A DNA stretch of 32,043 bases, taken from contig JAIXUQ010000030.1 in the NCBI GenBank assembly GCA_027483465.1, forward strand, positions 1 to 32,043, in the 5' to 3' direction. The notes below the pieces were generated by a model that did not search any database, was not told the origin of the DNA, and saw only the letters and a list, made by a program, of their open reading frames with translations. Position numbers and translations under genes: made by a program. This document shows positions 7,042 to 27,657 of the stretch, one piece after another. How positions within the stretch are numbered: the first letter of the stretch is position 1; every line of letters starts with the position of its first letter. The DNA is from Sphingomonadales bacterium (GTDB taxonomy: Bacteria; Pseudomonadota; Alphaproteobacteria; Sphingomonadales; Sphingomonadaceae).

Positions 7042-8471
7042 GCCGCCACCTCCAGCACGGCAAAGGGTGCGCCGGCAAGGGCGGCTGGCGGCTGAAGGAG
7101 CAGATCGCCCCCCTCGCGCCGGCACGGCACGGCCGGCCCATCCAGGATCGACAGGCCGCTGACCATGCCCCAGCCGGCCAGCCGGGCATCATCCGGCAGC
7201 GCGCCGGCCACAAGCGCATAGCGCCGGCCGCCCACCCGCACCGGCAGCACGGCCGTGCCGGCGATTTCGGCCGCCGGCAGCGCCGGATCGGGCCGGCTGC
7301 CGTAGATTGCGTGGCCATTGGCCCTGAGGAACGCGCCCAGCACGCCCAGCGGCCCGGCCTGTTCGGCCGGAATGCTGCCATCGGCGCGCGGGCCGATGTT
7401 GATCAGCAGATTGCCGCCATGGCCGACGATGCGCAGGAACATCGCCACCAGTGCATCGTCGGTGAGGAAATCCGCCGCCGTCTCGTTGGCCTTGTGGCCA
7501 AAGCTGTGGCCAACGCCGCGCACGGTTTCCCAGGCGATATCCCCCATGCCGGCGCTGGTGGCATATTCGGGGGTGCGGTGATCAAACACCGGCGGCACAT
7601 CGGGCGCAAAGGCAAAGCCGGGCGTGCGCAGCGCATCGGCCACCCCCCGGTTGAAGGCGGCGCGGGCGGCGGGATCGGCCATGGCGGCATGGCCGGGGGT
7701 GGGCAGCTGGAAGCGATCGTTGATCAGGCGATCGTCGCGGGCGTTGTAATAATCGGCCAGCAGCGCCCACAGATCATCGGCATCGGGATAGCCGATGTCG
7801 TTCCACAAGATGTCGGGATCGGTGGCGGCAATCAGCTCGCGATAATGATCGCGCATCATCTGCCGGGCGAGCGCACCGGCGGGCAGCGCGGCCCGCATTT
7901 CGCCAAGATTGGCAATGGGCTCCGGATTGAGCGTCCAATCCAGGCCGGCGCTGTAATAGACACCGAAGCGCAAGGAACGGGCCCGCGCGGCGCTGGCCAT
8001 TTCGGCGACCAGATCGCGGGGGGCATGCCAGCCGGCGCCGCGCAGCGGGTTGGCCAGGCGGGTGGGCCACAGGCAATAGCTGTCGTGATGCTTGGTGACC
8101 GGCACGACATAGCGGGCGCCGATGCCGGCGATGAAATCCATCAGCGGCGTGGCCGACCAGCGCGCCAGCCCGGCCTCGAACGCATGGCGGAAATCGCTGT
8201 AGGGCGCATCGCCAAAGCGGGCGCGGTGCTGCTGCGCGGTTGGGCCATCGGCGAATTTCAGGCTGTTTTCATACCATTCGGCATAGGGTGTGAGCTTGAG
8301 GGCATCATCTGGCCGATCGGCCAGCAGCCGGACGACATCGGTGCCGCGCGGCGCAAAGGCGGGCACGGAATAAAGGCCCCAGGTGATCATCACCCCCAGC
8401 TTGGCATCCCGCCACCACGCCGGCACGCCGTGGGCGGCCAGGCTTTCGGGATCGGCGCGATAACGGCTCAT
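7038..8471 (-). CDS. GH29 alpha-L-fucosidase, cytoplasmic
   Basis: This 477-aa glycoside hydrolase is expected to remove terminal alpha-L-fucose with retention. The GH29 barrel is visible from [20 protein letters not shown] (18-37), through [12 protein letters not shown] (125-136), to [12 protein letters not shown], where Asp225 sits at the nucleophile position. [14 protein letters not shown] and [17 protein letters not shown] follow, then a small beta-rich C-terminal domain. No signal peptide is seen, so it should act on imported fucosides. It is translationally coupled to the acyl-CoA dehydrogenase upstream (ATGA at 8468-8471) and to the SAF subunit downstream, so it is built into an operon otherwise concerned with CoA and carboxylation chemistry. 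A second GH29 gene lies at the right edge of the window. Confidence 0.92.
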
Positions 8472-9793
8472 GCCCAGGGATATCCCGGCGCGCCGGGGCG
8501 CAGATGGGCAAAGCGCTGCTCCACCTCCGCCAGCGACAGCACATGGGCATCGCCCCCCGTCTCGCGCGGATCGCTGTTGCGGTGGCGCTTCAGCTCAAGC
8601 CGGGCCAGCTGGTTGCGGTGCACCTCGTCGGGCCCGTCGGCCAGGCGCAGCAGCCGCGCGGTGGCAAAGGCGGCGCTGAGCAGATGATCATTGGCGGTGC
8701 CGCCGCCGCCAAACATCTGCATGGCATGATCCACCACTGTCTGCGCCATCGCCGGGGCGGCGATCTTGATCATGGCGATTTCCGCCCGCGCCGCCTTGTT
8801 GCCCACCGTGTCCATCATGTGCGCCGCCTTCAGGGTGAGCAGCCGGCATTGCTCGATCGCCAGCCGCGCCCCGGCAATGCGCTCCAGCGTCACCGACTGG
8901 TCGGCCAGCGACTGGCCAAAGGGCGTGCGCTGTTCGGCCCGTCGGCACATGCGCTCAAGGGTGCGTTCGGCCAGGCCGATCAGGCGCATGCAATGGTGGA
9001 TGCGCCCCGGCCCCAGCCGCCCCTGCGCGATTTCAAAGCCGCGCCCTTCGCCCAGCAGCATGTTGCCGGCCGGCACGCGCACATCGCGGAACAGCACTTC
9101 AGAGGCGCGATCGGGCACGCCGTAAAAGCCCAGCACCGGCAGCGGCCGCAGCACGGTCACGCCCGGCGTGTCTTTCGGCACCAGGATCATCGATTGCTGG
9201 CGGTGGCGATCGGGGTGATCGGGCGCGGTCTTGCCCATCAGGATGATGATGCGACAGCGCGGATCGGTGGCGCCGGTGGTGTACCATTTGCGCCCGTTGA
9301 TCACATAGTCATCGCCATCGCGCACGATCGCGCAGGCGACATTGGTGGCATCAGACGAGGCGACCTCTGGCTCCGTCATGGCAAAGGAGGAGCGGATCTC
9401 GCCGGCCAGCAGCGGCGCCAGCCACTGCGCCTGCTGTTCCGCGGTGCCATAGCGCAGCAGCACCTCCATGTTGCCGGTGTCGGGCGCGGCGCAGTTGAAC
9501 ACCTCGGGCGCCATCAGCGAGCGGCCCATGATCTCGCACAGCGGGGCATATTGCAGGTTGGTCAGGCCGGTGTGGCCACTGCCGAAATCGCCGGCATGGG
9601 CCGGCAGGAACAGGTTCCACAGGCCCTCGGCCCGGGCAAGCGGCTTCAATTCCTCCACCACCGGATAGACGCCCCACGGGCCCAGCTGCTCGGCCTCGGC
9701 ATAATAGCGGGCCTCGTTGGGATAGATGTGGCGGGCCATGAACGCCTTCAGGCGCCCGGCGAGTTCGCGGGTGACGGCATCAGGCTCGAACAT
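8468..9793 (-). CDS. Acyl-CoA dehydrogenase family protein
   Basis: This 441-aa flavoprotein of the acyl-CoA dehydrogenase fold should introduce an alpha,beta double bond into a CoA thioester. The FAD/substrate region reads [16 protein letters not shown] and the C-terminal substrate-site region reads [35 protein letters not shown]. It belongs to the larger, ACAD10/11-like branch rather than the short-chain branch, and carries a C-terminal extension of about 40 residues after LELKRHR. An AAGGAG ribosome site precedes ATG 9793. It lies 27 bp after the thiolase gene and overlaps the fucosidase gene by ATGA. Together with the thiolase and CoA ligase it points to beta-oxidation of an alkyl side chain. 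The actual acyl group is unknown. Confidence 0.92.
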
Positions 9794-9820
9794 AGTTGCA
9801 GCACTCCTTGTGGCCCGCGC

Positions 9821-10987
9821 TCATGGGCAGCGCTCGATCAGGGTGGCGTTGGCCATGCCGCCGGATTCGCACATGGTCACCAGGCCAAGGCGGCCGCCGC
9901 CGGCTTCCAGCGCCGCCAGGCAATTCAGGAACAGCCGCGCGCCCGATGCGCCCACCGGGTGGCCCAGCGCGATCGCACCGCCCATGGGGTTGACCCGGTC
10001 GGGATCGGCGCCGGTTTCGGCCAGCCAGTGCAGCACCACGCTGGCAAAGGCCTCGTTCACCTCGAACACGTCGATATCGCCGATCGCCAGCCCCGCCCGC
10101 GCCAGCAGCCGCGCGGTGGCCGGCACGATGGCGGTGAGCATCAGTACCGGATCATCCCCGGCAACGGCGAAATGGGTGATGCGGGCCCTGGGCCGCAGGC
10201 CAAGCGCGCGCGCCCTGCCCTCCTCCATGATCAGCACGGCGGCAGCGCCGTCGCTCACCGGGCTGGCATTGCCGGCCGTCACCTGCCAGCCGATGTCGGG
10301 AAAGCGGGCGGCCATCGCATCGCTGTGAAAGGCAGCGGGCAGCGCCGCCAGCCGTTCCAGGCTGCTGTCCGCGCGCACCCCCTCATCGGCCGTCACAATG
10401 CGATCGCCCACCCGGATCGGCACCAGGCCCGGCGCCGGATGCGCGGCGGCCAGCCGGTGGGAGCGCAGGGCAAAATGGTCCATCGCCGCCCGGCTGATCT
10501 GCCCCCGTGCCGCGATCAGTTCGGCCGAAACGCCCTGATGCACCAGCCCGTCGGGATAGCGGGCGGCCAGCGCCGCGCCCTGATTGTCGCGCCCCAGCCG
10601 GTTCGCCCTGGCCGGCACGGTGGACATCATCTCAACGCCGGCCGCCACCACCATGTCACAGGCGCCGGCGATCACCGCGCAGGCGGCAAAATCGATCGCC
10701 TGCTGGGCAGAACCGCACTTGCGGTCAAGGCTGACGGCGGGCACCGTTTCGGGCCAGCCGGCGGCCAGCACGGCCTGGCGGCCGATGTTGCCGGCCTGCT
10801 CGCCGGCCTGGATCACGCAGCCGGTGATGACATCCTCCACCGCGCCCGGATCAATGCCGGTGCGGGCCACCAGCGCGGTCAGGCACTGCGCCAGCAGATC
10901 AACCGGGTGCAGGCCGTGCAGCGCGCCGCCGGGCCGGCCCCGGGCAAAGGGCGAGCGCACGCCATCGACGATCACGGCCCGTCTCAT
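9821..10987 (-). CDS. Thiolase (acyl-CoA acetyltransferase)
   Basis: This 388-aa thiolase has a complete active site: Cys91 in LDRKCGSAQQ, the NEAFA block with His320 nearby, His343 in GGAIALGHPVGASG, and Cys373 in TMCESGGMANA. It should cleave a 3-ketoacyl-CoA with CoA, releasing acetyl-CoA. In the proposed pathway a natural substrate would be an aroylacetyl-CoA made by carboxylation and CoA activation of an aryl methyl ketone; general beta-oxidation is the conservative alternative. Length and motifs are normal for degradative or biosynthetic thiolases. It follows the carboxyltransferase gene after 24 bp and precedes the acyl-CoA dehydrogenase after 27 bp, so all three are probably co-transcribed. 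Confidence 0.93.
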   Translation of the reverse strand: MRRAVIVDGVRSPFARGRPGGALHGLHPVDLLAQCLTALVARTGIDPGAVEDVITGCVIQAGEQAGNIGRQAVLAAGWPETVPAVSLDRKCGSAQQAIDFAACAVIAGACDMVVAAGVEMMSTVPARANRLGRDNQGAALAARYPDGLVHQGVSAELIAARGQISRAAMDHFALRSHRLAAAHPAPGLVPIRVGDRIVTADEGVRADSSLERLAALPAAFHSDAMAARFPDIGWQVTAGNASPVSDGAAAVLIMEEGRARALGLRPRARITHFAVAGDDPVLMLTAIVPATARLLARAGLAIGDIDVFEVNEAFASVVLHWLAETGADPDRVNPMGGAIALGHPVGASGARLFLNCLAALEAGGGRLGLVTMCESGGMANATLIERCP

Positions 10988-11011
10988 GCGGCTGTTCTCA
11001 TGCTGGTGGCC

Positions 11012-12463
11012 TCATCGGCTCAGCTCCACCGAAAGCGTCTCGCCGGCCAGGCGGAAGTGCCGGCTGGAAAGGGTCTTCATCAGGCGGATGACCTGATCGG
11101 CCTCGGCCGAGGAGGCCAGCGGCAGGCTGGTGACCAGCGGGCCGGCGGCGCGCATCCGCTCGATATCGGCCTGCGGCACCAGCGCCCGCAGGAACAGTTC
11201 GTTATCATCATCGGTGCCATGGCGGCGGCGCAGTTCGGCCAGGCTGGGCTGTTCGGGCGGATTGGCCAGCACCTGCCCGGCCTTGGGATCGGCCATGATC
11301 CGGTCAAGCACGTTCGGATCGATGGGGGCCACCGGCTGGCCATAATGGCCGGCGGCATAGGTGATCACCTCCTCGGGAATGATCGACCAGCGCTGACCGG
11401 TGACGATGTTGAGCACCGCCTGGATGCCGACCAGCTGGCTGAACGGCGTGGCCATGCCCGGCCAGCCCAGTTCGCGGCGCACCTGCGCCACCTCGGCCAG
11501 CACCTCGCCCAGCCGGTCGTCCATGCCATGCTGTTTCAACTGGGCCTTCAGCGTGCCCACCATGCCGCCGGGGATCTGGTGGGCCACGGCAAACAGATCA
11601 TATTCGGCATGGGCGTTCACCGTGAAGCCGCAGGCGCGGCCCACCGCCTCGAAATGGGCGGCAACCGGCGGCAGGCAGGCCAGATCCAGATCATGGCTGT
11701 GGCCCAGATGGGCCAGATTGGCGGCCATGCATTCGGTGGAGGGCACCGACGGGCCATTGGCCATCGGCCGGCTGGCGGTGTGCAGGATGCTCACGCCCAG
11801 TGCCAGCGCATCGCAATAGGCCTTGGCCGATTGGCCCATCAGATTGTTGGCATGAAATTCGATCGGCTTGCCGCGCGCCTCGGCAACAATGGCGGGCAGC
11901 AGCGTTGACAGCCGCTCCTTCTCCAGCACCCCGGCGGTGTCATAGAGCAGCAGCGTGTCCACCTCGGGCAGCGCCGCCAGCGCCGCCGCCTTCTGCGCAT
12001 AATAGGCATCGGTGTGCACCGGGGAGAGGGTGAACATGATGGCGCCGGCCACTTCGGAGCCGAATTCCTTGGCCACCTGCGCCAGCCGCCGGGTGCGCCC
12101 GATATCGAACAGCACGTCATAGATCCAGAAACTGCGGGCGCCGTGGCGGTTGAGCTGGCGCATCCACAGATCCATCAGCGCATCGGGCGTGGTGCGAAAG
12201 CTGATGGCGGCATTGGCGCGCATGCCCGAACGCAGCACCGTGCGCGGCATGGCGGCGGCCAGCGCATCCATCATCGCCCAGGGATTTTCGCGGCAATGGC
12301 GCACCAGCACCTCGAAATGATGCGATCCGGTGAGATCGATCACCCGGAACCCGGTGCGGTCCAGCGCCGCGCAGGCCGGCAGGGCGTGGCGGGCCTGCAT
12401 GCGCATGCCCCACAGCGATTGCTGGCCATCGCGCAGCGTCTGATCAAGAAATTCCACCTTCAT
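11012..12463 (-). CDS. Divergent pyruvate-carboxylase-type carboxyltransferase subunit
   Basis: This 483-aa protein resembles the carboxyltransferase domain of pyruvate carboxylase, oxaloacetate decarboxylase alpha and the transcarboxylase 5S subunit. It opens with LDQTLRDGQQSLWGMRM (D7 at the metal position), keeps SRPMANGPSVPSTE late in the barrel, and has the helical PYC_OADA-type region with IPGGMVGTLKAQL and the AVLNIVTGQRW block. It would move CO2 from biotin to an acceptor. Unusually, the motif that normally reads KDMAG reads YDTAG, so the carbamylated metal-binding Lys is Tyr, and the HxH of the HTHD motif reads HAN, so one ligand His is Asn. The usual pyruvate-binding environment may therefore be changed. 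The gene overlaps the biotin carboxylase gene by ATGA. The fold call is firm; the acceptor is unknown and probably not pyruvate. Confidence 0.85.
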   Translation of the reverse strand: MKVEFLDQTLRDGQQSLWGMRMQARHALPACAALDRTGFRVIDLTGSHHFEVLVRHCRENPWAMMDALAAAMPRTVLRSGMRANAAISFRTTPDALMDLWMRQLNRHGARSFWIYDVLFDIGRTRRLAQVAKEFGSEVAGAIMFTLSPVHTDAYYAQKAAALAALPEVDTLLLYDTAGVLEKERLSTLLPAIVAEARGKPIEFHANNLMGQSAKAYCDALALGVSILHTASRPMANGPSVPSTECMAANLAHLGHSHDLDLACLPPVAAHFEAVGRACGFTVNAHAEYDLFAVAHQIPGGMVGTLKAQLKQHGMDDRLGEVLAEVAQVRRELGWPGMATPFSQLVGIQAVLNIVTGQRWSIIPEEVITYAAGHYGQPVAPIDPNVLDRIMADPKAGQVLANPPEQPSLAELRRRHGTDDDNELFLRALVPQADIERMRAAGPLVTSLPLASSAEADQVIRLMKTLSSRHFRLAGETLSVELSR

Positions 12464-13812
12464 GCCGCCGACCTGACGCCTGCCATGAACGCGCCCTCCA
12501 GCCAGCGGGTGGACAGCCGGTTGGCGATGAAATCGCCATGGCCGGCGATGCGGCGCAGGAACGGGATGGAGGTGGCGATGCCCTCAACCCGGAAATCCGC
12601 CAGCCCGGCCTGCAACCGGGCCACCGCCAGCGCGCGGGTGGGCGCGGCCACGATCAGTTTGGCCACCATGCTGTCATAAAAGGGCGGCACCTGGCAGCCG
12701 GCGGCAAAGCCGCTGTCGAGCCTGAGGCCGGGCGGCGGCTGCCAGCCGGTGATGCGCCCCGGCGCCGGCCGGAAGCCGCCATCGGCGTCCACCGCCTCGG
12801 CCAGGATGCGCACTTCGATGGCATGGCCGCGCGGCACCAGCCGGGCCGGCGGTTCGAAGCGGCCCAGGGCAAGCGCGATCTGCCATTGCACCAGATCAAT
12901 GCCCCAGACCATCTCGCTCACCGGATGTTCGACCTGGATGCGGGCGTTGACCTCGAGGAAGCGATACTGGCCGCGCGCTGCGTCCCACAGAAATTCCACC
13001 GTGCCGGCACCGCGATAGGCGATGGCGCCCAGCAGGCGGGCGGCGGCCGCCTCCATGTCGGCACGGGCCGCTTCGGGCACCGCGACGGCCGGGGCCTCCT
13101 CCACCAGTTTCTGATAGCGGCGCTGGATCGAACAATCGCGCGTGCCCAGCGTGATCACCCGGCCATCGCCCAGGCCAAAGGCCTGCACCTCGACATGGCG
13201 GGCGGATTCAACAAAGGGTTCCAGATAGATGCGCCCGTCGCCAAAGGCGGCCTCAGCTTCGGCGCGGGCCGCGGCCAGGGCGGCGGCCAGCCCGGTTTCG
13301 GCCTGCACCACCCGCATCCCGCGCCCGCCGCCGCCGGCCGAAGCCTTGGTGACCACCGGATAGCCCAGGCTGCGGGCGGCGCTGGCCGCTGCCCCGGCGT
13401 CTTCCAGGGCATCGCTGGCCTGCCCGGTTTCCACGCCCAGCGTGCGGGCCAGCGCCCGCGCCGCCAGCTTGTCACCCACCGCTGCCATCTGCGCCGGGGT
13501 GGGGCCGCAAAAGGCCAGGCCGGCATCGGCGACACCTTGAGCGAAGGCGGCATTTTCCGACAGGAAGCCATAGCCGGGGTGCAGCGCGGTGCAGCCGCTG
13601 GCGGTGGCGGCGTGCAGCAGCAGCCGGCCATCCAGATAGGATTGGCGGGCCGGCGCCGGGCCCAGCACCAGCGCGCGGTTGGCCGCCCGCGCCCACAGAC
13701 TGTCGCGATCGGCCTCGGACACGCCCACCACCGTCTCGATGCCCAGCGCCTGCGCCGCCGCGATGATGCGGCAGGCGATCTCGCCGCGGTTGGCCACAAA
13801 CAGCCTAGGCAT
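12460..13812 (-). CDS. Biotin carboxylase subunit
   Basis: This 450-aa ATP-grasp enzyme carboxylates biotin on the carrier protein using ATP and bicarbonate. All main motifs are present: FVANRGEIACRII at the N-terminus, LHPGYGFLSENA, the glycine-rich ATP loop KASAGGGGRGMRV, CSIQRRYQKLVEEAP, EVNARIQVEHPVSE with the catalytic Glu/Arg, AIEVRILAE, and YDSMVAKLI near the C-terminus. The chosen ATG 13812 gives the standard N-terminus and overlaps the BCCP gene by 8 bp; an upstream in-frame start would add 16 unrelated residues. The gene lies between the BCCP and the carboxyltransferase, so the three form one dedicated three-subunit carboxylase rather than the acetyl-CoA carboxylase of fatty acid synthesis. 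Confidence 0.95.
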   Translation of the reverse strand: MPRLFVANRGEIACRIIAAAQALGIETVVGVSEADRDSLWARAANRALVLGPAPARQSYLDGRLLLHAATASGCTALHPGYGFLSENAAFAQGVADAGLAFCGPTPAQMAAVGDKLAARALARTLGVETGQASDALEDAGAAASAARSLGYPVVTKASAGGGGRGMRVVQAETGLAAALAAARAEAEAAFGDGRIYLEPFVESARHVEVQAFGLGDGRVITLGTRDCSIQRRYQKLVEEAPAVAVPEAARADMEAAAARLLGAIAYRGAGTVEFLWDAARGQYRFLEVNARIQVEHPVSEMVWGIDLVQWQIALALGRFEPPARLVPRGHAIEVRILAEAVDADGGFRPAPGRITGWQPPPGLRLDSGFAAGCQVPPFYDSMVAKLIVAAPTRALAVARLQAGLADFRVEGIATSIPFLRRIAGHGDFIANRLSTRWLEGAFMAGVRSAA

Positions 13813-14260
13813 CCGGCCTGATCCGGAACAGCGGCTGGCCATGCTCGACCAGATCGCCATCGCTGGCGAGGATGGCGGTGATCACCCCGGCGCATGGCGA
13901 TTGCACGCTGGTGAACAGCTTCATCACCTCGACGAGGCACAGATCATCGCCGGCCGCCACGCGCGCGCCCAGCTGGGTGAAGGGCGGGGCGCCGGGCTTG
14001 GGCGCGCGATAGAAGGTGCCCAGGCTGGGCGCCGGCACCGGCAGGCTGCCATCCGGCGGCTCGGCCGCCAGGGTGGGCGGCGGGGCCGGCGGTGGCGGCG
14101 CGGCGGCCGGAAGGGGTGTGGGCGAAAGGGTTGAGGGCGGGGCGTCACCGTCCTTCGACAGCATGATCTCGATGCCATCGGCCTTCAGATGGATGGTGCG
14201 CCAGTCGCTGGCCTCGAACGTGGCGAGGATGGCATCGATATCGCTGCGGGAAATCGCCAT
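13805..14260 (-). CDS. Biotin carboxyl carrier protein
   Basis: This 151-aa protein carries the biotin that shuttles CO2 between the carboxylase and the carboxyltransferase. It resembles AccB: an N-terminal segment of about 38 residues, a Pro/Ala-rich flexible linker (about 40-70), then a biotinyl domain containing GTFYRAPKPG and the attachment motif EVMKLF with Lys114. The linker is typical of mobile carriers. ATG 14260 is preceded by GGAGG at a somewhat long spacing of about 13 nt, within the 9-bp gap and the end of the dikinase-like gene. Its TAG stop overlaps the start of the biotin carboxylase gene. As a separate carrier beside a pyruvate-carboxylase-type carboxyltransferase it completes an unusual mixed architecture. 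Confidence 0.93.
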   Translation of the reverse strand: MAISRSDIDAILATFEASDWRTIHLKADGIEIMLSKDGDAPPSTLSPTPLPAAAPPPPAPPPTLAAEPPDGSLPVPAPSLGTFYRAPKPGAPPFTQLGARVAAGDDLCLVEVMKLFTSVQSPCAGVITAILASDGDLVEHGQPLFRIRPDA

Positions 14261-14269
14261 GGTTTTGGT

Positions 14270-15706
14270 TCAGCCTCCGCGTTCGGCAAGTGCGGCGAGG
14301 CGCGGCGCGTCGGCCGCCGCCAGCGCCAGCGCACGATAGCGGGCCAAAGCCGGTGCCGGCGGCGGCGCTGCCAGCGGCAGCAGGCCGGCAAACACCCGCC
14401 CGCTGGTGCCGCACACCGTGACCGGCTGCCCGGCGAGCAGCGCCAGCGTGCCGGCGCCGCAGCCAGTGACCACCGGCTTGCCCAGCGCGCGCCCCACCAC
14501 GGCCGCGTGGCTGGTGGCCCCGCCGGCTTCGGTGACGACGGCCACCGCCGCCAGCATGCCGCCCACATCATCCGGGCTGGTGGTGGGGCGCACCAGCACC
14601 ACGGTCTCGCCGGCGGCGGCCCGCGCCTCGGCCTCGGGCGCGCTGGTGACGGCGAGGCCGGCCCCGGCGCCCGGGGAGGCCGGGGTGCCGCTGGCCAGCA
14701 GCGGTGCCGCACCGGGATCGGTCAGCACCGGGGCCAGCATCGCGGCCAGTTGCGCCGGTGTGACTCGCGCCAGCGCCTCCTCACGGCTGATCAGGCCTTC
14801 ATCATGCATGGCCATGGCGATGGTGACTGCCGCGCGCGCCGTGCGCTTGGCGGCGCGGCTCTGCAGGAAATACAGGCGGCCGGCCTCGATGGTGAACTCG
14901 ATATCCTGGGCATCGCGGCCGGCCTGTTCGAGCGCGCGGGCCCCGGCCAGCAATTGGGCATGTGCCTCGGGCAGGGTGGCGGCCAGACGCTCCAGCGGCT
15001 CGGCATTGTGGGTGCCCGCCACCAGCGCCTCGCCCTGCGCGCGGGCCAGCCATTCGCCCCAGGGGGCCGGCTCGCCGCTGATCGGGTTGCGGCTGAACAT
15101 CACGCCGGTGCCCGAACGGTCACACAGATTGCCGAACACCATCGCCTGAACGGTGACCGCGGTGCCCAGATCATCGGGAATGCCGTGATGGGCGCGGTAG
15201 CGGCGGGCGCGGCGGCTGTTCCACGATGCCATCACCGCCGCCACGGCGGCCAGCAGCTGGCTTGGCGCATCGCCGGGCACCGCGCCAACACAGGCGGTGA
15301 ACTGGGCGTGGAAGGCGGCCCGCAGGCTGTCGACAAAGGCGGGATTGCCGGTTTCCGTCGCCAGCCCGGCCGCCACCGCATCGGTGAGGCCCAGATTGAG
15401 CAGGGTTTCCATCATGCCCGGCATCGAGACGGCGGCCCCCGATCGCACCGCGACCAGCAAGGGCCGTTCGGCGCCGCCAAAGCGCCGGCCGGTGGCCGCC
15501 TCAAGCCCGCGCACGCCGGCCATCAGCTGGCCGGCAAAGCCCTCGGGCAACTGGCCGGCCTGCGCCCAGGCCCGCGCCACCGCGGTGGGCACCACGAAGG
15601 CCGGCGGCACCGGCAGCCCCAGCCGTGCCATCGCCAGCAGGGATGCCGCCTTGCCGCCGATGCGATCCGGCCCGGCATCCAGCGTTGCCTCCAGCGGCAG
15701 GATCAT
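14270..15706 (-). CDS. Truncated PPDK-like kinase: ATP-grasp plus phosphohistidine domain
   Basis: This 478-aa protein matches the first half of pyruvate, phosphate dikinase. It has the N-terminal nucleotide-binding part (GGKAASLLAMARLGLPVP at 17-34; VRSGAAVSMPGMMETLLNLG at 87-106), the DIEFTIEAGRLYFLQSR block (268-284), and a swivelling phosphohistidine domain with GGATSHAAVVGRALGKPVV and catalytic His400. The C-terminal PEP/pyruvate-binding barrel of PPDK is absent; the protein ends about 70 residues after the histidine domain. It should take phosphate from ATP onto His400 but cannot phosphorylate pyruvate by itself. Related two-domain or split proteins occur in rifampin phosphotransferase and phenylphosphate synthase. 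It is coupled upstream to a 204-aa unknown by ATGA and followed by the carboxylase genes, which suggests phosphorylation of the carboxylase's substrate. Confidence 0.92.
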   Translation of the reverse strand: MILPLEATLDAGPDRIGGKAASLLAMARLGLPVPPAFVVPTAVARAWAQAGQLPEGFAGQLMAGVRGLEAATGRRFGGAERPLLVAVRSGAAVSMPGMMETLLNLGLTDAVAAGLATETGNPAFVDSLRAAFHAQFTACVGAVPGDAPSQLLAAVAAVMASWNSRRARRYRAHHGIPDDLGTAVTVQAMVFGNLCDRSGTGVMFSRNPISGEPAPWGEWLARAQGEALVAGTHNAEPLERLAATLPEAHAQLLAGARALEQAGRDAQDIEFTIEAGRLYFLQSRAAKRTARAAVTIAMAMHDEGLISREEALARVTPAQLAAMLAPVLTDPGAAPLLASGTPASPGAGAGLAVTSAPEAEARAAAGETVVLVRPTTSPDDVGGMLAAVAVVTEAGGATSHAAVVGRALGKPVVTGCGAGTLALLAGQPVTVCGTSGRVFAGLLPLAAPPPAPALARYRALALAAADAPRLAALAERGG

Positions 15707-16317
15707 TCCACCCGCTCCGTGCCCGACAGGCGCAGCAGATCCTCGTGCAGATCAAACCAAAATGTGTGATAGCTTTCGCAGCCGACATCCGAGACGAAGG
15801 CGATCTCTCCATCCTCCGCGCGTTCAAGCGCGGCCAGCAGCCCGTCGCGCGTGACGGCCAGGCGCGGCACCAGCCCGGCCAGCTGATCGAGCAGCGGGGT
15901 GACACGGTCGTGAAAACGGCCCAACCGATCGATGATGCGGGCATCATGGGCCGGATCGTCATGATCATTGGCCAGGGTGACACCGCCGATGCTGCGGGTT
16001 TGCCAATCGGTCATGAGCGCCTTGAGATCATGGTTGACCACTTCAAACCGGGCCACGGCCGCCACAAAGGCGGGATCGGCACGCAGCGCAGCACAGGTGC
16101 GGGAATAATCGGCCGCCAGCGCCAGGCGGGCCAGCGGCGCCAGCATCAGCCGCTCACCGGCGCGCACCACGCGGCCGTGGGCGGCGGCCAGAACCAGCAT
16201 GGCCTCGGCCTCGGCCGGGTCCATCGCCATGCGCCGCGCCACGTCGGCAGGGGTGGCGGTGCGCAGGATGGCCAGGCCATGCAGGGCCAGGTGCCAGCCG
16301 GGTCCGGGGTTTCTCAT
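15703..16317 (-). CDS. Unrecognised 204-aa protein with winged-helix-like start
   Basis: I do not recognise this protein. From ATG 16317 it opens with about 70 residues that read like a small winged-helix fold (ALHGLAILRTATPADVARRM, then LLVLAAAHGRVVRAGERLMLAPLAR). The remainder is helical, with several charged and aromatic patches such as VNHDLKALMTDWQTRSIGG and SYHTFWFDLHEDLLRLSG at the C-terminus. It has no signal peptide or membrane segment. Its position decides its interest: ATGA overlaps tie it to the CoA ligase before it and to the dikinase-like kinase after it, so it is probably made in fixed ratio with that kinase. It could be a subunit, substrate-binding module or regulator of the phosphotransferase. 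The coding call rests on frame, couplings and normal codon bias; the function is open. Confidence 0.82.
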   Translation of the reverse strand: MRNPGPGWHLALHGLAILRTATPADVARRMAMDPAEAEAMLVLAAAHGRVVRAGERLMLAPLARLALAADYSRTCAALRADPAFVAAVARFEVVNHDLKALMTDWQTRSIGGVTLANDHDDPAHDARIIDRLGRFHDRVTPLLDQLAGLVPRLAVTRDGLLAALERAEDGEIAFVSDVGCESYHTFWFDLHEDLLRLSGTERVE

Positions 16318-17786
16318 GCCGTCAACTCCTGCCCGGCCAGCACGCGCCGTTTCACCTCGCGGCGCAGGATCTTGTTGGCCGGGCTCTTGGGCAGCGCATC
16401 CCACACGTCGATCGCCCTGGGCGCCTTGTATCCGGCCAGCGCCGCCCGGGCGTGGGCCAGCAGGGCGGCGGCATCGATCCCCTGCCCGCTCACCACGGCG
16501 TGTACCCGGTCCCCCCAGGTCTCGTCGGGCAGGCCGATCACGGCGGCCTCCACCACGCCGGGGAAGGCCAGCAGCACGTCCTCCACCTCGCGCGGGTAAA
16601 CATTGTAGCCACCGGAAATCAGCATGTCGCCCTTGCGGTCGAGCAGGTAGAAAAACCCGTCCTCGTCCATGCGGCCGATGTCACCGGTGTGCAGCCAGCC
16701 GCCGCGAAACGCCGTGGCCGTGGCCTCCGGCCGCTCCCAATAGCGGGCCATCAGCTGGGGCCCCTTCACCACGATCTCACCCACCGCGCCGGGCGGCAGC
16801 AGCTGGCCGGCATCGTCCATCACCGCCACCTGCGCCAGCGTGAAGGGCCGCCCGCACGAACCGATCCGGTCATGCTCGTCGGGTTTCAGGCAGGTGATCA
16901 CCATCGGCGATTCCGCCTGGCCATAGGTTTGCGCAAACACGCGGCCAAACCGCTGCTCGGCACGGGCATAAAGCGCCGGCGCAATCGGCGAGGCGCCATA
17001 GGCGATGCGCCGCAACGCCAGATCGGCCCCGGCCAGGGCCGGTTCCTCCAGCAGCAGGGCCAGCATGGTGGGCACCAGGAAGGTCATGGTGGCGCGGCTG
17101 GCGGCCGCCAGCGCCACGAAGGCCGCGGCATCGAACTTCGCCATCACGTGGCTGGTGGTGCCGCGCACCAGCGCCGGCAGGAAGAAGGCGCCGGAGGCAT
17201 GGGCGATCGGGGCAGCGTGCAGAAAGCGGTCATCCGGGCCGATATCGGGCACCAGATCGGTGAGGAAGGCCGACAGTTCGGCCAGTTCCCCGCGCTCGGT
17301 GAGCGTCACCGCCTTGGGCCGGCCGGTGGTCCCACCGGTGAAACCCAGGCGATAGGGTTCATCAAGGCCGCGCGCCACCGTGCAATCGGCATCATCGGCA
17401 TCGGCCAGCAGCGCACGCAGCCGGGCCGGCGGCAGGATGATCTCCACGCCCAGCGCGGGCGCCGCATCGCCCACCAGCACGGCACGGGCGCCCACCTCGG
17501 CCAGCTTGTGGGCCAGATCGGCCGGCGTGTCGCGGCTGTTCAGGCTCACCCGCACCAGCCCGGCCTTGGCCAGACCATAATAGGCGATCAGGCAATCAAT
17601 GCCGTTGGGCAGCAACACGCCCACCCGGTCACCATGGGCCAGGCCAAGCCGCTGCATGGCATGGGCAAAGCGGCTGGTGGCGGCATCGAAGCCGGCAAAG
17701 CTCACCACCCGCTCCCCCTCCACTAGGCAGGGCTTCGGGCCAAACTGGCGGGCGGCGCGGGCGATCAGATCGGCAATCTGGCTCAT
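16314..17786 (-). CDS. AMP-forming acyl/aryl-CoA ligase
   Basis: This 490-aa ANL-superfamily enzyme activates a carboxylic acid through an acyl-AMP to the CoA thioester. Visible motifs are the ATP loop GFTGGTTGRPKAVTLT, the YGASPI and YGQAES segments, LHTGDIGRMDEDGFFYLLDR, the hinge KGDMLISGGYNVYPREVE, and the C-terminal catalytic lysine in LPKSPANKILRREV. Length and layout match medium-chain and aromatic acid ligases such as benzoate/cinnamate-type enzymes. It is coupled by ATGA to the 488-aa unknown upstream and the 204-aa unknown downstream. In the proposed pathway it would activate the 3-oxo acid produced by the carboxylase before thiolysis; a plain aromatic or fatty acid is the alternative. 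The substrate cannot be read from sequence. Confidence 0.94.
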   Translation of the reverse strand: MSQIADLIARAARQFGPKPCLVEGERVVSFAGFDAATSRFAHAMQRLGLAHGDRVGVLLPNGIDCLIAYYGLAKAGLVRVSLNSRDTPADLAHKLAEVGARAVLVGDAAPALGVEIILPPARLRALLADADDADCTVARGLDEPYRLGFTGGTTGRPKAVTLTERGELAELSAFLTDLVPDIGPDDRFLHAAPIAHASGAFFLPALVRGTTSHVMAKFDAAAFVALAAASRATMTFLVPTMLALLLEEPALAGADLALRRIAYGASPIAPALYARAEQRFGRVFAQTYGQAESPMVITCLKPDEHDRIGSCGRPFTLAQVAVMDDAGQLLPPGAVGEIVVKGPQLMARYWERPEATATAFRGGWLHTGDIGRMDEDGFFYLLDRKGDMLISGGYNVYPREVEDVLLAFPGVVEAAVIGLPDETWGDRVHAVVSGQGIDAAALLAHARAALAGYKAPRAIDVWDALPKSPANKILRREVKRRVLAGQELTA

Positions 17787-19249
17787 GCCAGCGCCCCCGG
17801 ATAGGCCAGCGTGGTTTCACAGCGGAAATTCGCCGCCGGCTGGCAGGCGGCCGGCACGAAGGCCCGCGCCGCTTCATTGTAGGCCGCCAGGCTCAGCACG
17901 CCGCGCGTGGTGCGATACCGGTCGTTCTTGGGCGGCAGGTGGCTGCCGCCTTTCTGGGGCGGGGCCACGCGCGGCAGATAGGGGGCGCCATTCAGCACCG
18001 ATAGCGGCAGCGGCGTCAGCACGCGGGTTGGCTTGTCCGACCATTTCATCAGGCCGTGCGGTGCCGTCTGCTGGCTGGGCAGGGTCAGGCTGCCCACCAG
18101 TTCGCCCAGGGCCTGGTCGGCATAGTCATCCGAGAGCAGCGGCCGGAAGCGTTCGGCGCGCGGATCAATCTCCAGCCAGTCGGCCGGATCGAACACACCG
18201 GCGATATGGGCGATTTCCTTGCAGATGGCATAATAGCACAGGGCGCCGGCATCGATCAGCTGGTCACGCCGCCAGCCCGCCATGCGCAGCCACAGCCGGT
18301 CGGTCGCCGCCTTGGCCCGGTCCGACAGGTCGTGCAGCATGGCGGCGAGCGTGGCCGGGCTGTCCATGCCCACCGGCTGGTGCCCCTCGCTCAGCGTGTC
18401 GGAGGTGTAGAGGCCGATGCCGGTCAGCCGGTCGGGCGTGAATTCGGGCGTCGCCTCGAAGCTGCCCCAGTCGTCCACCAGGTGGAAATGGCAGCCGGTC
18501 ACCGCCATCGCCACGGTGAGATTGTTGTACGGCATGTCGGCGGCGATATCATCCAGCCAGGGCAGGGAGGTCTCGCCCAGATCCATGAAATCCCGCATCA
18601 GCAGCTGGCGATCGTCATCCAGCCGGTACGGGCCGGAATTGGTGAGACTGATGCGGCTTTCGGCGCTGACCAGAAAGCCATATTGCGAGACGGTGGCGAG
18701 GAAGCGCTGCGCCGCCACCGACAGCGCATCGCCGGGCACCACCGGGTGCAGTTCGCCGGCAAAGCGCTGCACGGCGGCATGGGGCAGGATCTGGGCGCGC
18801 TGGTTGTAATCGGCGTTGGTCAGATGCCCGTCGTTGCGGTGCCACGCCAACTGGAACCGCTTCCAGAAATCCATCACCGTGATCACGTCGTCCAGCGCAT
18901 CCTGCGGGCGCAGAAAGCCCAGGTTGATCAGATATTCCCGGCCCAGCAGGTAGAAACAGGGCAATGCCCAGCCGATGCTGCTGTTTTGCGCCTTCACGCC
19001 CATCTGGCGGGCCCGGTCGGCAATGGCCTCGGCCGGCATCACCGCCTCCACCTTCCGGATCAGGCTGGGATAGCGGTAGAAGGCGTTGAGATAGGAGAGC
19101 AGGATATAGGCCGACACCGGATAGAGTTTCGAACCCTGCACGGTGCGGGTGAGGCACAGCCAATAGGTGCTGTCACCACAGGCCTGGATCAACTGGTTGG
19201 TTTCCAGCAACCGGGCATAGCTGATGGCCGGGCGGACCGGAGCGCTCAT
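17783..19249 (-). CDS. Unrecognised 488-aa protein of the phosphotransfer/carboxylation operon
   Basis: I cannot place this protein in a family. From ATG 19249 it is 488 aa, soluble-looking and rich in aromatic residues and tryptophan. Conspicuous patches are TNQLIQACGDSTYWLCLTR, YILLSYLNAFYRYPSLIRKV, SIGWALPCFYLLGREYLI, MDFWKRFQLAWHRNDGHL, VTGCHFHLVDDWGSFE, and a Pro/Lys-rich stretch before the C-terminus. No nucleotide-binding loop, heme motif or signal peptide is seen. ATGA overlaps bind it tightly to a small phosphohistidine protein upstream and the CoA ligase downstream. Phenylphosphate synthase of Thauera has a large subunit whose C-terminus carries the phosphohistidine; this gene plus its 241-aa neighbour could be a split equivalent, with this part holding the organic substrate. 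That idea is inference only. Confidence 0.85.
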   Translation of the reverse strand: MSAPVRPAISYARLLETNQLIQACGDSTYWLCLTRTVQGSKLYPVSAYILLSYLNAFYRYPSLIRKVEAVMPAEAIADRARQMGVKAQNSSIGWALPCFYLLGREYLINLGFLRPQDALDDVITVMDFWKRFQLAWHRNDGHLTNADYNQRAQILPHAAVQRFAGELHPVVPGDALSVAAQRFLATVSQYGFLVSAESRISLTNSGPYRLDDDRQLLMRDFMDLGETSLPWLDDIAADMPYNNLTVAMAVTGCHFHLVDDWGSFEATPEFTPDRLTGIGLYTSDTLSEGHQPVGMDSPATLAAMLHDLSDRAKAATDRLWLRMAGWRRDQLIDAGALCYYAICKEIAHIAGVFDPADWLEIDPRAERFRPLLSDDYADQALGELVGSLTLPSQQTAPHGLMKWSDKPTRVLTPLPLSVLNGAPYLPRVAPPQKGGSHLPPKNDRYRTTRGVLSLAAYNEAARAFVPAACQPAANFRCETTLAYPGALA

Positions 19250-19971
19250 GGCAGTTTCCAGATGCGGGCCGGCATGTCGGTGCCGGTGAGATAGGATTCG
19301 GCGGTGCGCGCCGCGGCGCTGGTTTCCAGCCGGATGCGGTCGCCATCCTGCACGCCGGCCAGCCGCACATTCATCAGGCAAGCGATGCCATGCTCGCGCG
19401 CCAATATGCCCAGGTGGGAACGCACGGTGCCGCCGGCACACACCAGCCCGGCAAAGCGATCGAGGATCGGCGCGGTGAGCGTGCCGCCGCTGTCATCGAT
19501 GATGGCGATGCTGCCAGCGGGGACGCCGCTTTCCATCAGGGCGATCACCTGGGCTGCCGATCGCACATAGCGGGCGATGCCCTCGATGTCGGCTGCGGCC
19601 TGCACCACATTGTCGCCTGCGCCGCACAGCGATTTGCCCTCGGCATCGGGCGGCGCCGTCGGGGCATCGGGATGGGCAAAGCCGCCATCCAGCGCGGCCA
19701 GGCCCTGATAGGCCTCCGGCCGCTCCACCGCCGAAATGGTGGCGGAAAAGGCATAACGGTGGCCGGTGGCCAGGATGGCGGCATCGATGGCGGCCAGGTC
19801 GGGCGCGGTGATGCACCGGTCGATCGGCCCGGCAACAAAGGCCTCCCAATCCAGCCCGCTTTCGGCCAGGCGCCGCCGCACCAGATCGCGCACCGAAAGA
19901 TGCACGGCCGCCACCAGCGGCGAATCCGGCTCGCCGCCCCACAGGCCATTGTCGGTGGGCAGCAGGCTCAT
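19246..19971 (-). CDS. PEP-utilising-enzyme mobile (phosphohistidine) domain protein
   Basis: This 241-aa protein ends in a swivelling phosphohistidine domain of the PEP synthase/PPDK type (about 140-225): SGVPAGSIAIIDDSGGTLTA, then LVCAGGTVRSHLGILAREHG with His186 at the phosphorylated position, followed by IACLMNVRLAGVQDGDRIRL. Compared with the canonical GGxTSHA motif it has one extra residue before the Ser-His pair. The first 135 residues form an unfamiliar domain. No ATP-grasp is present, so it must receive phosphate from elsewhere, most likely from the dikinase-like kinase six kilobases downstream in the same operon. Overlaps by ATGA with the ene-reductase gene upstream and the 488-aa gene downstream support joint production. 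It may be the acceptor half of a phenylphosphate-synthase-like complex. Confidence 0.85.
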   Translation of the reverse strand: MSLLPTDNGLWGGEPDSPLVAAVHLSVRDLVRRRLAESGLDWEAFVAGPIDRCITAPDLAAIDAAILATGHRYAFSATISAVERPEAYQGLAALDGGFAHPDAPTAPPDAEGKSLCGAGDNVVQAAADIEGIARYVRSAAQVIALMESGVPAGSIAIIDDSGGTLTAPILDRFAGLVCAGGTVRSHLGILAREHGIACLMNVRLAGVQDGDRIRLETSAAARTAESYLTGTDMPARIWKLP

Positions 19972-21029
19972 GCCCGCGCCTCCCGCGCGCCCGGATCGGC
20001 CATCATCAGCAGGGTGCCGTTGTTGCGGCCCTGGAACAGGTCGCAGAAATGCTGCGGCAATTCGGCAAAGCCTTCGCGCAGATCATCGCGATAGACGATG
20101 GCGCCGCTGTCATAACCGGCCTTCAGGTCGGCCCGCGCCAGATCCCATTCGGCGGCGAAATCCCCCACCAGAAAACCGCGCATGGTGATGCTGCCATAGA
20201 TCAGCCGCATCATGTTGGCCGGCCCGCGCATGCCGGTGCCATCATAGCCGGCGATCTGCCCGCACAGCACGATGCGGCCCATCCGGTTCATCGCATCAAC
20301 GGCGGCATCCAGCGTGCTGCCGCCAACATTGTCGAAAAACACGTCCACCCCGCCGGGGCAGGCACGGGCAATGGCTTCGGACAGGTGCCCGGCATGATAA
20401 TCGATGGCGGCATCGGCACCGGCCACATCGGTGAGCCAGCGGCATTTTTCCGGCCCGCCGGCAATCGCCACCACCCGGGCACCGGCCAGCCGGCCCAGTT
20501 GCACGGCGATGCTGCCCACCGATCCGGCCGCGCCCGATACCAGCAGCGTTTCCCCGGCGCGCAGGGCGCCGATGCGGTGGATGCCGAACCAGGCCGTGAG
20601 CGGATTGATGCCAAAGCGGCCCATGGCATCCACCAGGCTGAGGCCGGCGGGCACCAGCAGCGTCTCGCTGCCGGGCAGGCGCAGGCGGCCCTGCCAGCGG
20701 CCAAGGCAGGTGACATCGGCGCCCACCGGCCGTTCGGGATCAGCCGACGCGACGATGCGGCCGCCAGCCGGCGCCAGCATGGCCGCCCCCAGCGGCACCG
20801 ACGGGTAAAGGCTGTTGCCGGGCGGGTCCATCCAGTTGCGCATGGTGGGCGCGCACAGGAACAGCCGCAGCGCCACATCGATTTCGCCGGGCGCCAGCGG
20901 TTCATCGCTGGCTGGCTGCGGCTGGAGGCTGAAGATGTCGGGGCGCAGGCGGCCTTCGGGCCGGCGCGCCAGGACCCACTGCCGGTCGGTCACGGCTGCA
21001 CCGCGCGGCCGGACACCGGCTCTGCCCAT
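19968..21029 (-). CDS. CurA/LTB4DH-type NADPH-dependent ene-reductase (MDR family)
   Basis: This protein of about 353 aa belongs to the zinc-free medium-chain reductases that reduce the C=C bond of alpha,beta-unsaturated ketones (leukotriene B4 dehydrogenase, curcumin reductase). It shows the family N-terminus TDRQWVLARRPEGR, the NADPH loop LLVSGAAGSVGSIAVQLGRL, GGPEKCRWL, DVFFDNVGG and LCGQIAGYD. The start is uncertain: ATG 21029 has GGAAG about 7 nt upstream, GTG 20993 matches the usual family N-terminus best, and GTG 21077 is the outermost possibility. It is the first gene of the long minus-strand operon, facing a divergent promoter region, and is coupled to the phosphohistidine gene by ATGA. 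An aryl enone feeding an aryl ketone pathway would fit this position, but the substrate is unproven. Confidence 0.9.
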   Translation of the reverse strand: MGRAGVRPRGAAVTDRQWVLARRPEGRLRPDIFSLQPQPASDEPLAPGEIDVALRLFLCAPTMRNWMDPPGNSLYPSVPLGAAMLAPAGGRIVASADPERPVGADVTCLGRWQGRLRLPGSETLLVPAGLSLVDAMGRFGINPLTAWFGIHRIGALRAGETLLVSGAAGSVGSIAVQLGRLAGARVVAIAGGPEKCRWLTDVAGADAAIDYHAGHLSEAIARACPGGVDVFFDNVGGSTLDAAVDAMNRMGRIVLCGQIAGYDGTGMRGPANMMRLIYGSITMRGFLVGDFAAEWDLARADLKAGYDSGAIVYRDDLREGFAELPQHFCDLFQGRNNGTLLMMADPGAREARA

Positions 21030-22232: not shown

Positions 22233-22243
22233 GGAGACACGCC

Positions 22244-23278: not shown

Positions 23279-23334
23279 AGGCTTGTCTTTCGCCCTGACA
23301 GTGCCAAGAGTGGCCCTGCAGCAAGGTGGCAGGC

Positions 23335-24126: not shown

Positions 24127-24143
24127 ATTCGCGCATATGTGAA

Positions 24144-24164
24144 GTTGCATTTTATTTCTGCAAC
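24144..24164. promoter_or_regulatory. Inverted repeat upstream of the symporter gene, candidate operator
   Basis: GTTGCA and TGCAAC form perfect 6-bp arms around a 9-nt AT-rich centre, in the only AT-rich part of the 124-bp gap between the IclR gene and the symporter. Size and symmetry fit a dimeric or tetrameric IclR site. A hairpin terminator is less likely because no T-run follows the second arm. Confidence 0.45.
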
Positions 24165-24250
24165 GGCCATCATCCTCGGCAAGGTGCCCGCGGCCTGACC
24201 GGATCAACCCCGGCGCGGCGGCGGCGCACGTTGAGGGGAGATCCGCCAGC

Positions 24251-25663: not shown

Positions 25664-25679
25664 TCCGGCGGGGCCGGGC

Positions 25680-26417: not shown

Positions 26418-26441
26418 GTCCTGTCTCTTTTCCTTGCTGGG

Positions 26442-26461: not shown

Positions 26462-26487
26462 AAATCCGGGCCGGGCCGATCCGGCGA

Positions 26488-27647: not shown

Positions 27648-27657
27648 CGCCCCCCGA

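What the first reader, a model, noticed from the sequence alone, without database searches (positions are those of the whole stretch)
9821..21029. Operon joining a dikinase-like phosphotransferase to a dedicated biotin carboxylase, CoA ligase and thiolase
Seen directly: kinase (14270-15706), phosphohistidine protein (19246-19971), BCCP, biotin carboxylase and carboxyltransferase (11012-14260), AMP-forming ligase and thiolase in one chained operon. Known: the Hpe (Rhodococcus) and Acv/Vce (Sphingobium) pathways phosphorylate the phenol of acetovanillone or 4-hydroxyacetophenone, carboxylate the methyl ketone with a biotin enzyme, then cleave the aroylacetate. Inference: this operon encodes an aryl-ketone pathway of that kind, possibly for a different ketone because it also has an ene-reductase and an acyl-CoA dehydrogenase. 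No obvious phosphatase is seen in the window.
Basis: partly seen in the sequence, partly recalled or inferred. Interest (0 to 1): 0.88.

Follow-up and report, generated by a model that had tools for sequence, protein, structure and literature searches.

The report
Four-part kinase feeding a biotin carboxylase
A twelve-gene bacterial operon appears to tag an unknown molecule with phosphate using an unusual kinase built from several separate proteins, one of them without a match among solved structures, then add carbon dioxide and break the molecule down.

Summary
The operon is real: twelve minus-strand genes (7038-21029), seven of eleven junctions with 4-nt overlaps. It encodes an ene-reductase, phosphohistidine swivel protein, 488-aa protein, CoA ligase, 204-aa helper, truncated pyruvate phosphate dikinase, three-part biotin carboxylase, thiolase, ACAD11-like dehydrogenase and GH29 glycosidase.

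The donor is a VadK-like half-PPDK with its own histidine. The 488-aa partner has no profile match to HpeH and, despite a confident model, no PDB fold match. Its carboxyltransferase group is sister to Hpe-type ones and has lost a catalytic lysine (Tyr or Glu in 62 of 62; Lys in 9 of 9 HpeHI- or Tm-1-linked comparators). A thiolase replaces the hydrolase; no HAD phosphatase was found.

A nine-gene module recurs in Alpha-, Beta- and Gammaproteobacteria and Actinomycetota. A natural swivel-488-helper fusion suggests one kinase. Best reading: a phosphohistidine relay phosphorylates a hydroxyl on a ketone, which is carboxylated, CoA-activated and thiolysed; the ACAD11-like enzyme may then expel the phosphate. 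Substrate unknown; nothing points specifically to phenols. Kinase activity, substrate and order of steps are inferred.

The parts
19968..21029 (-). MDR ene-reductase (prostaglandin reductase / double-bond reductase type), first gene; an upstream GTG at 21077 is also possible
   Evidence: Pfam ADH_N_2 + ADH_zinc_N; PDB matches include double-bond and prostaglandin reductases; 81% in G008 and G304
19246..19971 (-). Stand-alone phosphohistidine swivel protein (241 aa, His186 in RSHLGI)
   Evidence: PEP-utilizers 6.9e-07; hhalign to HpeH-type swivel E 1.3e-07; RSHLGI kept in 74 of 74 long hits in 84 module loci
17783..19249 (-). 488-aa presumed substrate-binding component of the kinase; no fold match found
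   Evidence: No Pfam/NCBIfam match; AF2 pLDDT 92.1, pTM 0.92; best PDB match E 0.45; fused to swivel, and to swivel and helper, in other genomes
16314..17786 (-). AMP-forming acyl-CoA ligase
   Evidence: AMP-binding 6.4e-73; homolog of about 60-68% next to the 488-type gene in many proteobacterial relatives, 35-40% in others
15703..16317 (-). 204-aa helper of the kinase: winged-helix-like N-terminus and conserved helical C-terminus
   Evidence: AF2 pLDDT 95.2; PDB matches mostly winged-helix regulators, best E 0.031, none at 0.001; directly upstream of the kinase in 54 of 55 kinase hits
14270..15706 (-). Truncated pyruvate phosphate dikinase: ATP-grasp plus His swivel, no pyruvate/PEP domain (VadK-like)
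   Evidence: NCBIfam PRK05878 580 bits over cut-off 456; aligned to PPDK 1vbg residues 22-522 only, with GGxTSH motif
13805..14260 (-). Biotin carboxyl carrier protein (EVMKLF motif)
   Evidence: Biotin_lipoyl 8.6e-17; sequence
12460..13812 (-). Biotin carboxylase
   Evidence: CPSase_L_D2, Biotin_carb_N and _C; start chosen at ATG 13812, 8-nt overlap with BCCP
11012..12463 (-). Carboxyltransferase, pyruvate-carboxylase-B type, with Tyr174 for the usual Lys and Asn206 for the second His
   Evidence: PYC_OADA 5.4e-26; tree; active-site columns
9821..10987 (-). Thiolase
   Evidence: Thiolase_N/C; TIGR01930 over cut-off
8468..9793 (-). ACAD10/11/LvaC-type acyl-CoA dehydrogenase
   Evidence: 453 bits to ACAD11 and 444 to the unnamed relative 4hr3, then 138 bits; R259, H267, R270, D386 at the ACAD11 phosphoacyl-CoA residues
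7038..8471 (-). GH29 alpha-L-fucosidase-like enzyme, last gene, overlapping ACAD by 4 nt
   Evidence: Alpha_L_fucos 1e-57; 81% in the same place in G008 and G304

Best explanation
The operon encodes a catabolic pathway for a hydroxylated ketone. (1) A truncated PPDK, with its helper, autophosphorylates its histidine from ATP. (2) The phosphoryl group passes to the stand-alone swivel protein. (3) The swivel phosphorylates a hydroxyl of a small molecule held by the 488-aa protein. (4) The biotin carboxylase adds CO2 next to the ketone. (5) The ligase makes the beta-ketoacyl-CoA. (6) The thiolase releases acetyl-CoA. (7) In this sub-branch the ACAD11-like enzyme may expel the phosphate from a 4-phosphoacyl-CoA, which would make a phosphatase unnecessary. 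The ene-reductase (before) and GH29 (unmasking a fucoside) are accessories. Shown: gene content, families, synteny, fusions, conserved residues. Inferred: the relay, the substrate class, the order of steps and step 7.
For: Families and spacing. Module conservation in 43 loci with full flanks: swivel 43, ligase 42, helper 41, PPDK-half 40, BCCP 41, BC 39, CT 41, a thiolase of either kind 41, from Alpha-, Beta-, Gammaproteobacteria and Actinomycetota by record titles. Fusions: an R. opacus B4 793-aa protein = swivel (18-109) + 488-type (210-549, 4.8e-48) + helper (610-789), in a cluster with a PPDK-half about 7 kb away on the other strand; an R. oxybenzonivorans 542-aa protein = swivel + 488-type. 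Histidine motifs: RSHLGI in 74 of 74 long swivel hits; GGxTSH in 59 of 63 PPDK-half hits. The truncated PPDK VadK of M. tuberculosis autophosphorylates on its His and is more soluble with its operon partner Rv1126c (PMC13400623, passages). CT is sister to Hpe-type CTs. A biotin synthase gene lies near the module in three genomes. ACAD key residues, with ACAD10/11 acting on 4-phosphoacyl-CoAs and LvaC the bacterial homolog (PMC12440821, passages).
Against: No substrate is known. Two of 43 loci (L122, L125) carry swivel and 488-type genes without the carboxylase, and four loci (L042, L046, L049, L050) carry CTs of the same wider clade without the kinase set in the 20-30 kb read, although the plasmids of L042 and L046 hold PPDK-halves elsewhere. 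So the coupling is not strict. The carboxyltransferase has changed canonical active-site residues and might do other chemistry. Of 102 swivel hits of any length, 79 have SHLGI; the seven others that were printed read SHLA or were cut after the His. For step 7: an ACAD homolog of at least 50% identity is in only 9 of 87 loci, while matches to two Y_phosphatase3 proteins are in 14 (both in two Rhodococcus loci, next to an APH gene in L006 and a short APH match in L005), so other branches probably use a phosphatase. The own genome also has two further close ACAD homologs (61% and 50%), seven APH matches and one Y_phosphatase3 elsewhere.
Confidence: 0.55

Rival explanations
1. One reading: a hydroxyaryl ketone (hydroxyacetophenone/acetovanillone type, or a raspberry-ketone-like arylbutanone after ene-reduction) is phosphorylated on its phenol and handled as in Hpe/Acv.
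For: Same enzyme classes in one operon; CT sister to Hpe-type CTs; ene-reductase of the superfamily that includes zingerone synthase; the pathway shape fits a methyl ketone.
Against: Kinase of another make and 488-aa protein without HpeH match; CT active site differs from 5 of 5 HpeHI-type and 4 of 4 Tm-1-type CTs; no HAD phosphatase found; thiolase, not hydrolase. The neighbours sampled in other loci show no consistent aromatic signature.
Confidence: 0.15
2. The kinase parts are a regulatory histidine phosphorelay, as proposed for VadK, which controls pathway enzymes rather than phosphorylating the substrate.
For: The PPDK-half is VadK-like, and VadK is reported as a regulatory kinase interacting with methylcitrate-cycle enzymes (PMC13400623, passages); the helper N-terminus is winged-helix-like.
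Against: A swivel domain fused to a 488-type domain resembles substrate-handling dikinases; the set is kept with one pathway across phyla; matches to Y_phosphatase3 proteins are in 14 of 87 loci.
Confidence: 0.15
3. The relay phosphorylates the enol of the ketone, making a PEP-like enol phosphate, and the carboxylation step uses this activated form.
For: The ATP-grasp half is of the PPDK type, whose natural product is an enol phosphate; changed CT active-site residues suggest altered enolate chemistry.
Against: The characterised small-molecule relatives HpeHI, PpsAB, CreHI and RPH phosphorylate hydroxyls (PMC12167813, sections read); an enol phosphate would not need a phosphatase, yet 14 of 87 loci have a match to one.
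Confidence: 0.08
4. Step 7 alternative: the ACAD is an ordinary dehydrogenase of a later acyl-CoA and the phosphate is removed by a phosphatase encoded elsewhere in the genome.
For: One Y_phosphatase3 gene elsewhere in the genome; most module loci lack this ACAD in the DNA at hand, though many contigs are short.
Against: ACAD10/11 had no activity on ordinary acyl-CoAs under the published conditions (PMC12440821, passage), and all four key residues are kept.
Confidence: 0.4

Closest known systems
Hpe (R. rhodochrous GD02) / Acv (Sphingobium SYK-6) hydroxyphenylethanone pathway
   Same: Kinase of the swivelling-dikinase superfamily, three-part biotin carboxylase with PC-B-type CT, and (in Hpe) an AMP-forming CoA ligase in one operon
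   Different: Kinase built of other parts; CT in a sister clade with Tyr/Glu for Lys and mostly Asn for the second His; no HAD phosphatase found; thiolase instead of hydrolase; ACAD11-like, ene-reductase and GH29 added. Compared with stand-in loci of the same gene set, not with GD02 or SYK-6 themselves
VadK (Rv1127c), truncated PPDK of mycobacteria
   Same: ATP-grasp plus His domain without the pyruvate/PEP domain, with a small operon partner
   Different: Here in a catabolic operon with a second swivel protein and a 488-aa partner, which offers a candidate acceptor chain; VadK and its partner were known to me from passages of the paper only and not compared by sequence
Rifampin phosphotransferase, PpsAB, CreHI
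   Same: ATP-grasp, histidine swivel and separate substrate-binding part
   Different: Substrate part has no detectable sequence match to the HpeH kind and no significant PDB fold match; two swivels instead of one
ACAD10/11 and LvaA/LvaC 4-hydroxy acid catabolism
   Same: ACAD with the phosphoacyl-CoA residues R, H, R and catalytic D
   Different: No APH-type kinase among the window ORFs scanned; the phosphate would come from the relay

Membership tests
Hpe/Acv pathway | Two-component kinase HpeH (substrate part + swivel) and HpeI (ATP-grasp) | tested here: not met
   488-aa profile vs HpeH-type profile: hhalign probability 0.4%, with thin profiles; only the swivel matches; the ATP-grasp protein is PPDK type with its own swivel
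Hpe/Acv pathway | Three-part biotin carboxylase with CT of the Hpe clade | tested here: inconclusive
   BCCP, BC and CT present; CT is in the sister clade, not inside the HpeHI/Tm-1 clade
Hpe/Acv pathway | CT keeps the catalytic Lys and H-x-H as in HpeHI-type loci | tested here: not met
   Tyr174 and Asn206; Lys in 5 of 5 HpeHI and 4 of 4 Tm-1 CTs; Tyr in 53 and Glu in 9 of 62 split-kinase CTs
Hpe/Acv pathway | HAD phosphatase (HpeD/AcvF) in the cluster | tested here: not met
   No phosphatase family in 30 scanned window ORFs; no match to the HAD phosphatase of L045 at E 1e-12
Hpe/Acv pathway | Growth and induction on hydroxyphenylethanones | not testable with these tools
   Needs culture and enzyme assays
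Swivelling-domain dikinases | ATP-grasp domain and phosphohistidine swivel | tested here: met
   PPDK_N 3.7e-40, PEP-utilizers 2.7e-20; RSHLGI 74 of 74 long hits of the second swivel
Swivelling-domain dikinases | Substrate-binding domain of a known kind | tested here: inconclusive
   Confident model without significant PDB match, best E 0.45; a missing Foldseek match does not prove a new fold
VadK-type truncated PPDK | PPDK without C-terminal pyruvate/PEP domain | tested here: met
   478 aa aligned to PPDK 22-522 only; NCBIfam PRK05878 over cut-off
VadK-type truncated PPDK | Operon partner homologous to Rv1126c | not tested
   Rv1126c sequence was not fetched; a helper homolog lies beside the PPDK-half in M. 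branderi
ACAD10/11/LvaC | Phosphoacyl-CoA residues R626, H634, R637 and catalytic D753 (mouse ACAD11) | tested here: met
   R259, H267, R270, D386 in the phmmer alignment, assuming the chain numbering is one lower than the paper's
ACAD10/11/LvaC | Activity on 4-phosphoacyl-CoA | not testable with these tools
   Needs purified enzyme

The most novel reading that the evidence does not exclude
A PTS-like phosphohistidine relay for one small molecule: a PPDK-derived donor with helper passes phosphate to a second swivel protein and on to a substrate bound by a protein of new fold; the product feeds a biotin carboxyltransferase whose metal site has been rebuilt (Lys to Tyr or Glu), and the phosphate later serves as leaving group in an ACAD11-like elimination. 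This would be a complete, widely scattered and so far undescribed catabolic module.
Probability: 0.35. Interest if true: 0.8.

Novelty: new variant of a known kind. Interest (0 to 1): 0.62.

Why it matters
If right, it describes a conserved but apparently uncharacterised pathway type found in Alpha-, Beta- and Gammaproteobacteria and Actinomycetota, a kinase assembled from separable parts, and a biotin carboxylase with altered catalytic residues. It also gives a physical model for what truncated PPDKs of the VadK kind may hand their phosphate to, which the passages of the VadK paper that I read treat as regulatory interactions. The substrate class can be sought by induction tests in cultured carriers such as Sphingobium estronivorans AXB, Roseiarcus fermentans DSM 24875 or Novosphingobium resinovorum SA1.

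Tried and rejected
Considered and rejected: (a) 488-aa protein as the substrate part of HpeH or RPH: no profile match to HpeH-type and no significant fold match. (b) Helper as a mere transcription regulator: fused with kinase parts in R. opacus B4 and with an AMP-ligase in Rhodococcus LW-XY12, and directly upstream of the PPDK-half in 54 of 55 kinase hits. (c) Benzophenone-3 or PET as substrate, because carriers R. oxybenzonivorans and R. pyridinivorans P23 are known for these: the listings and passages of one paper gave no link to this cluster; the benzophenone-3 pathway paper itself was not read. (d) Tyrosine-phosphatase-like enzyme as core: matches in only 14 of 87 loci. (e) Cyanobacterial carotenoid fucosides as substrate, suggested by GH29 and by the nearest relative ULC179bin3 (that ULC is a cyanobacterial collection is recalled): no evidence beyond neighbourhood. 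Searches for a description of this module were judged from listings only (3 papers; 15 of 140; 8 of 11), so a description elsewhere is not excluded. The MarK paper is not held; a review searched for it had no mention. Rows dropped before counts: the CT tree left out short or duplicate loci L001-L003, L009, L010, L018-L040 and second copies L060, L097, L116; the two structure models used only window rows and rows from the genome-contig scan. Three of the 87 loci are second copies (L048/L060, L051/L116, L052/L097).
Full report
What is there. The minus strand from 21029 to 7038 carries twelve genes: ene-reductase, swivel protein, 488-aa protein, AMP-forming ligase, 204-aa helper, truncated PPDK, BCCP, BC, CT, thiolase, ACAD, GH29. 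Seven of eleven junctions overlap by 4 nt, three gaps are 9, 24 and 27 nt, and BCCP/BC overlap by about 8 nt if ATG 13812 is the start. The window is contig C75 of a 3.58-Mb draft genome. That it belongs to the Sphingomonadaceae group is inferred: genomes of the same family as the window match named contigs by length (G276 = Sphingobium estronivorans, G243 = Novosphingobium rosa, G318 = Sphingopyxis sp.). G008, of the same genus, matches the MAG ULC179bin3 in the same way.

The kinase. The 478-aa protein has the PPDK ATP-grasp and histidine domains and lacks the pyruvate/PEP domain. A second histidine domain is a separate 241-aa protein whose motif RSHLGI is kept in 74 of 74 long hits in 84 module loci; counting short and paralogous hits too, SHLGI is in 79 of 102, and the seven others that were printed read SHLA or were cut after the His. 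It matches the HpeH-type swivel by profile (E 1.3e-07). The 488-aa protein shows no profile match to HpeH-type proteins (hhalign probability 0.4%, with thin profiles). A model from 69 rows is confident (pLDDT 92.1, pTM 0.92), yet the best PDB match has E 0.45, and TM by query length is 0.13 or less in the 50 rows shown; viral models give nothing at E 0.001. The helper (pLDDT 95.2) matches mostly winged-helix regulators (best E 0.031, none at 0.001) and has a conserved helical C-terminus. That these form one machine is supported by fusions: a 793-aa R. opacus B4 protein holds swivel, 488-type and helper in a row, with a PPDK-half about 7 kb away, and a 542-aa R. oxybenzonivorans protein holds swivel and 488-type. 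In M. branderi, Diaphorobacter and Rhodococcus LW-XY12 the PPDK-half with helper stands near a protein like the C-terminal third of HpeH, so the pair looks like a general phosphoryl donor unit. VadK of M. tuberculosis, a truncated PPDK, autophosphorylates on its histidine, and co-expression with its operon partner improved its solubility (PMC13400623; passages); I did not compare those sequences.

The carboxylase. In a tree of 81 carboxyltransferases the 62 from split-kinase loci, with a few others, are sister to the HpeHI- and Tm-1-linked ones (95/81 and 100/100), with three oxaloacetate-decarboxylase subunits outside; the drawn root is the midpoint. Four loci of the wider split clade (L042, L046, L049, L050) have no kinase set in the DNA read, though the plasmids of L042 and L046 carry PPDK-halves elsewhere. 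The usual Lys is Tyr in 53 and Glu in 9 of 62 split-kinase CTs, and the second His of H-x-H is Asn in 50 of 62, while 5 of 5 HpeHI, 4 of 4 Tm-1 and the three oxaloacetate-decarboxylase rows keep Lys and His. Among the ten rows without a kinase label, Lys is kept in 6, Tyr in 2, Glu in 2. That this Lys is carbamylated and binds the metal in pyruvate carboxylase and its kin is recalled. So the enzyme is related to, but not the same as, Hpe-type carboxylases.

Distribution. A scan of genome contigs (one genome for each of 84,980 species) with two peptide patterns gave 115 encoding loci; 80 were kept. In the 43 loci with full flanks (39 of those 80, plus the window and three plasmid loci) the module is nearly complete; they were chosen by the 488-aa protein, so that gene is 43 of 43 by construction. 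L122 and L125 lack the carboxylase; L061 and L123 lack a detectable PPDK-half and/or BC. In broad samples it is rare: 3 of 60 relatives, counting the own genome and one distant 26% match, and 1 of 398 in the phylum sample at E 1e-60, the own genome. Carboxyltransferases of this and the Hpe kind together were in 23 of 296 genomes of the order.

Phosphate disposal. The ACAD is ACAD11-like: 453 bits to ACAD11 and 444 to the unnamed relative 4hr3, then 138 bits, with R259, H267, R270 and D386 at the residues described for 4-phosphoacyl-CoA recognition and catalysis (PMC12440821 passages). That would let the phosphate leave by elimination. It is an inference: an ACAD homolog of at least 50% identity is seen in 9 of 87 loci and a match to one of two Y_phosphatase3 proteins in 14; both in two Rhodococcus loci, with an APH gene beside the ACAD in L006 and a short APH match in L005 (three of the 87 are second copies, and many contigs are short). 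The own genome has two further close ACAD homologs (61% and 50%, each read with one TGA in the frame), seven APH matches and one Y_phosphatase3 elsewhere.

Substrate. Not known. Among the loci read, the ene-reductase and GH29 belong to the module only in the window, G008 and G304; weaker ene-reductase-like hits (34-35%) lie near it in L124 and L130. In these three genomes the same neighbours for 6-deoxysugar breakdown lie next door, so an alpha-L-fucoside of the substrate is conceivable. Transport-related genes near other copies range from ABC to TonB and MMPL types, which argues against one obvious compound.

Comparison. Hpe details come from PMC9618137 (part 1 of 3 of the results, and the discussion) and PMC12167813 (abstract, structure section, discussion); PMC13101465 (passages) adds a single-component kinase, MarK, in Novosphingobium and says kinase and carboxylase genes clustered in 52 of 836 cases. 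Verdict: works like Hpe/Acv in outline, not a member; a new variant.

Noticed in passing
It may be the MarK kind of single-component kinase or another; not compared.
   Followed up: partly
L139 6929-13613: Cnuibacter plasmid operon CT-BCCP-BC-BioY-SCOT A/B-thiolase beside a 2,4'-dihydroxyacetophenone dioxygenase family gene: looks like a biotin-dependent ketone carboxylation route without kinase.
   Followed up: no
L015 12001-15827, L014 9592-13476, L016 7334-13374: PPDK-half plus helper stands near HpeH-like PEP-utilizing enzymes in Mycobacterium branderi, Diaphorobacter and Rhodococcus LW-XY12, suggesting acceptors for VadK-like kinases.
   Followed up: partly
window 21243-31997: Likely 6-deoxysugar (L-fucose type) breakdown cluster: aldo-keto reductases, MFS_2 carrier, SDR, amidohydrolase, MR_MLE enzyme, FAA hydrolase and a second GH29-like stretch near the window end; most of these genes kept beside the operon in G008 and G304.
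   Followed up: partly
L048 12966-14012, L060 19891-20934, L004 14893-15837, L065 3044-3970: A biotin synthase gene lies near the module in three genomes, which fits demand for biotin.
   Followed up: no
L017 11908-14442: Methylibium petroleiphilum PM1 plasmid carries a long PPDK-like gene (about 844 aa) inside a bacterial microcompartment gene cluster.
   Followed up: no
window 2703-4708: A GGDEF-EAL protein gene overlaps a BLUF photoreceptor gene by 4 nt (2703-4244 and 4241-4708).
   Followed up: no
L123: A Rhodocyclaceae MAG has three carboxyltransferase genes in one module locus.
   Followed up: no
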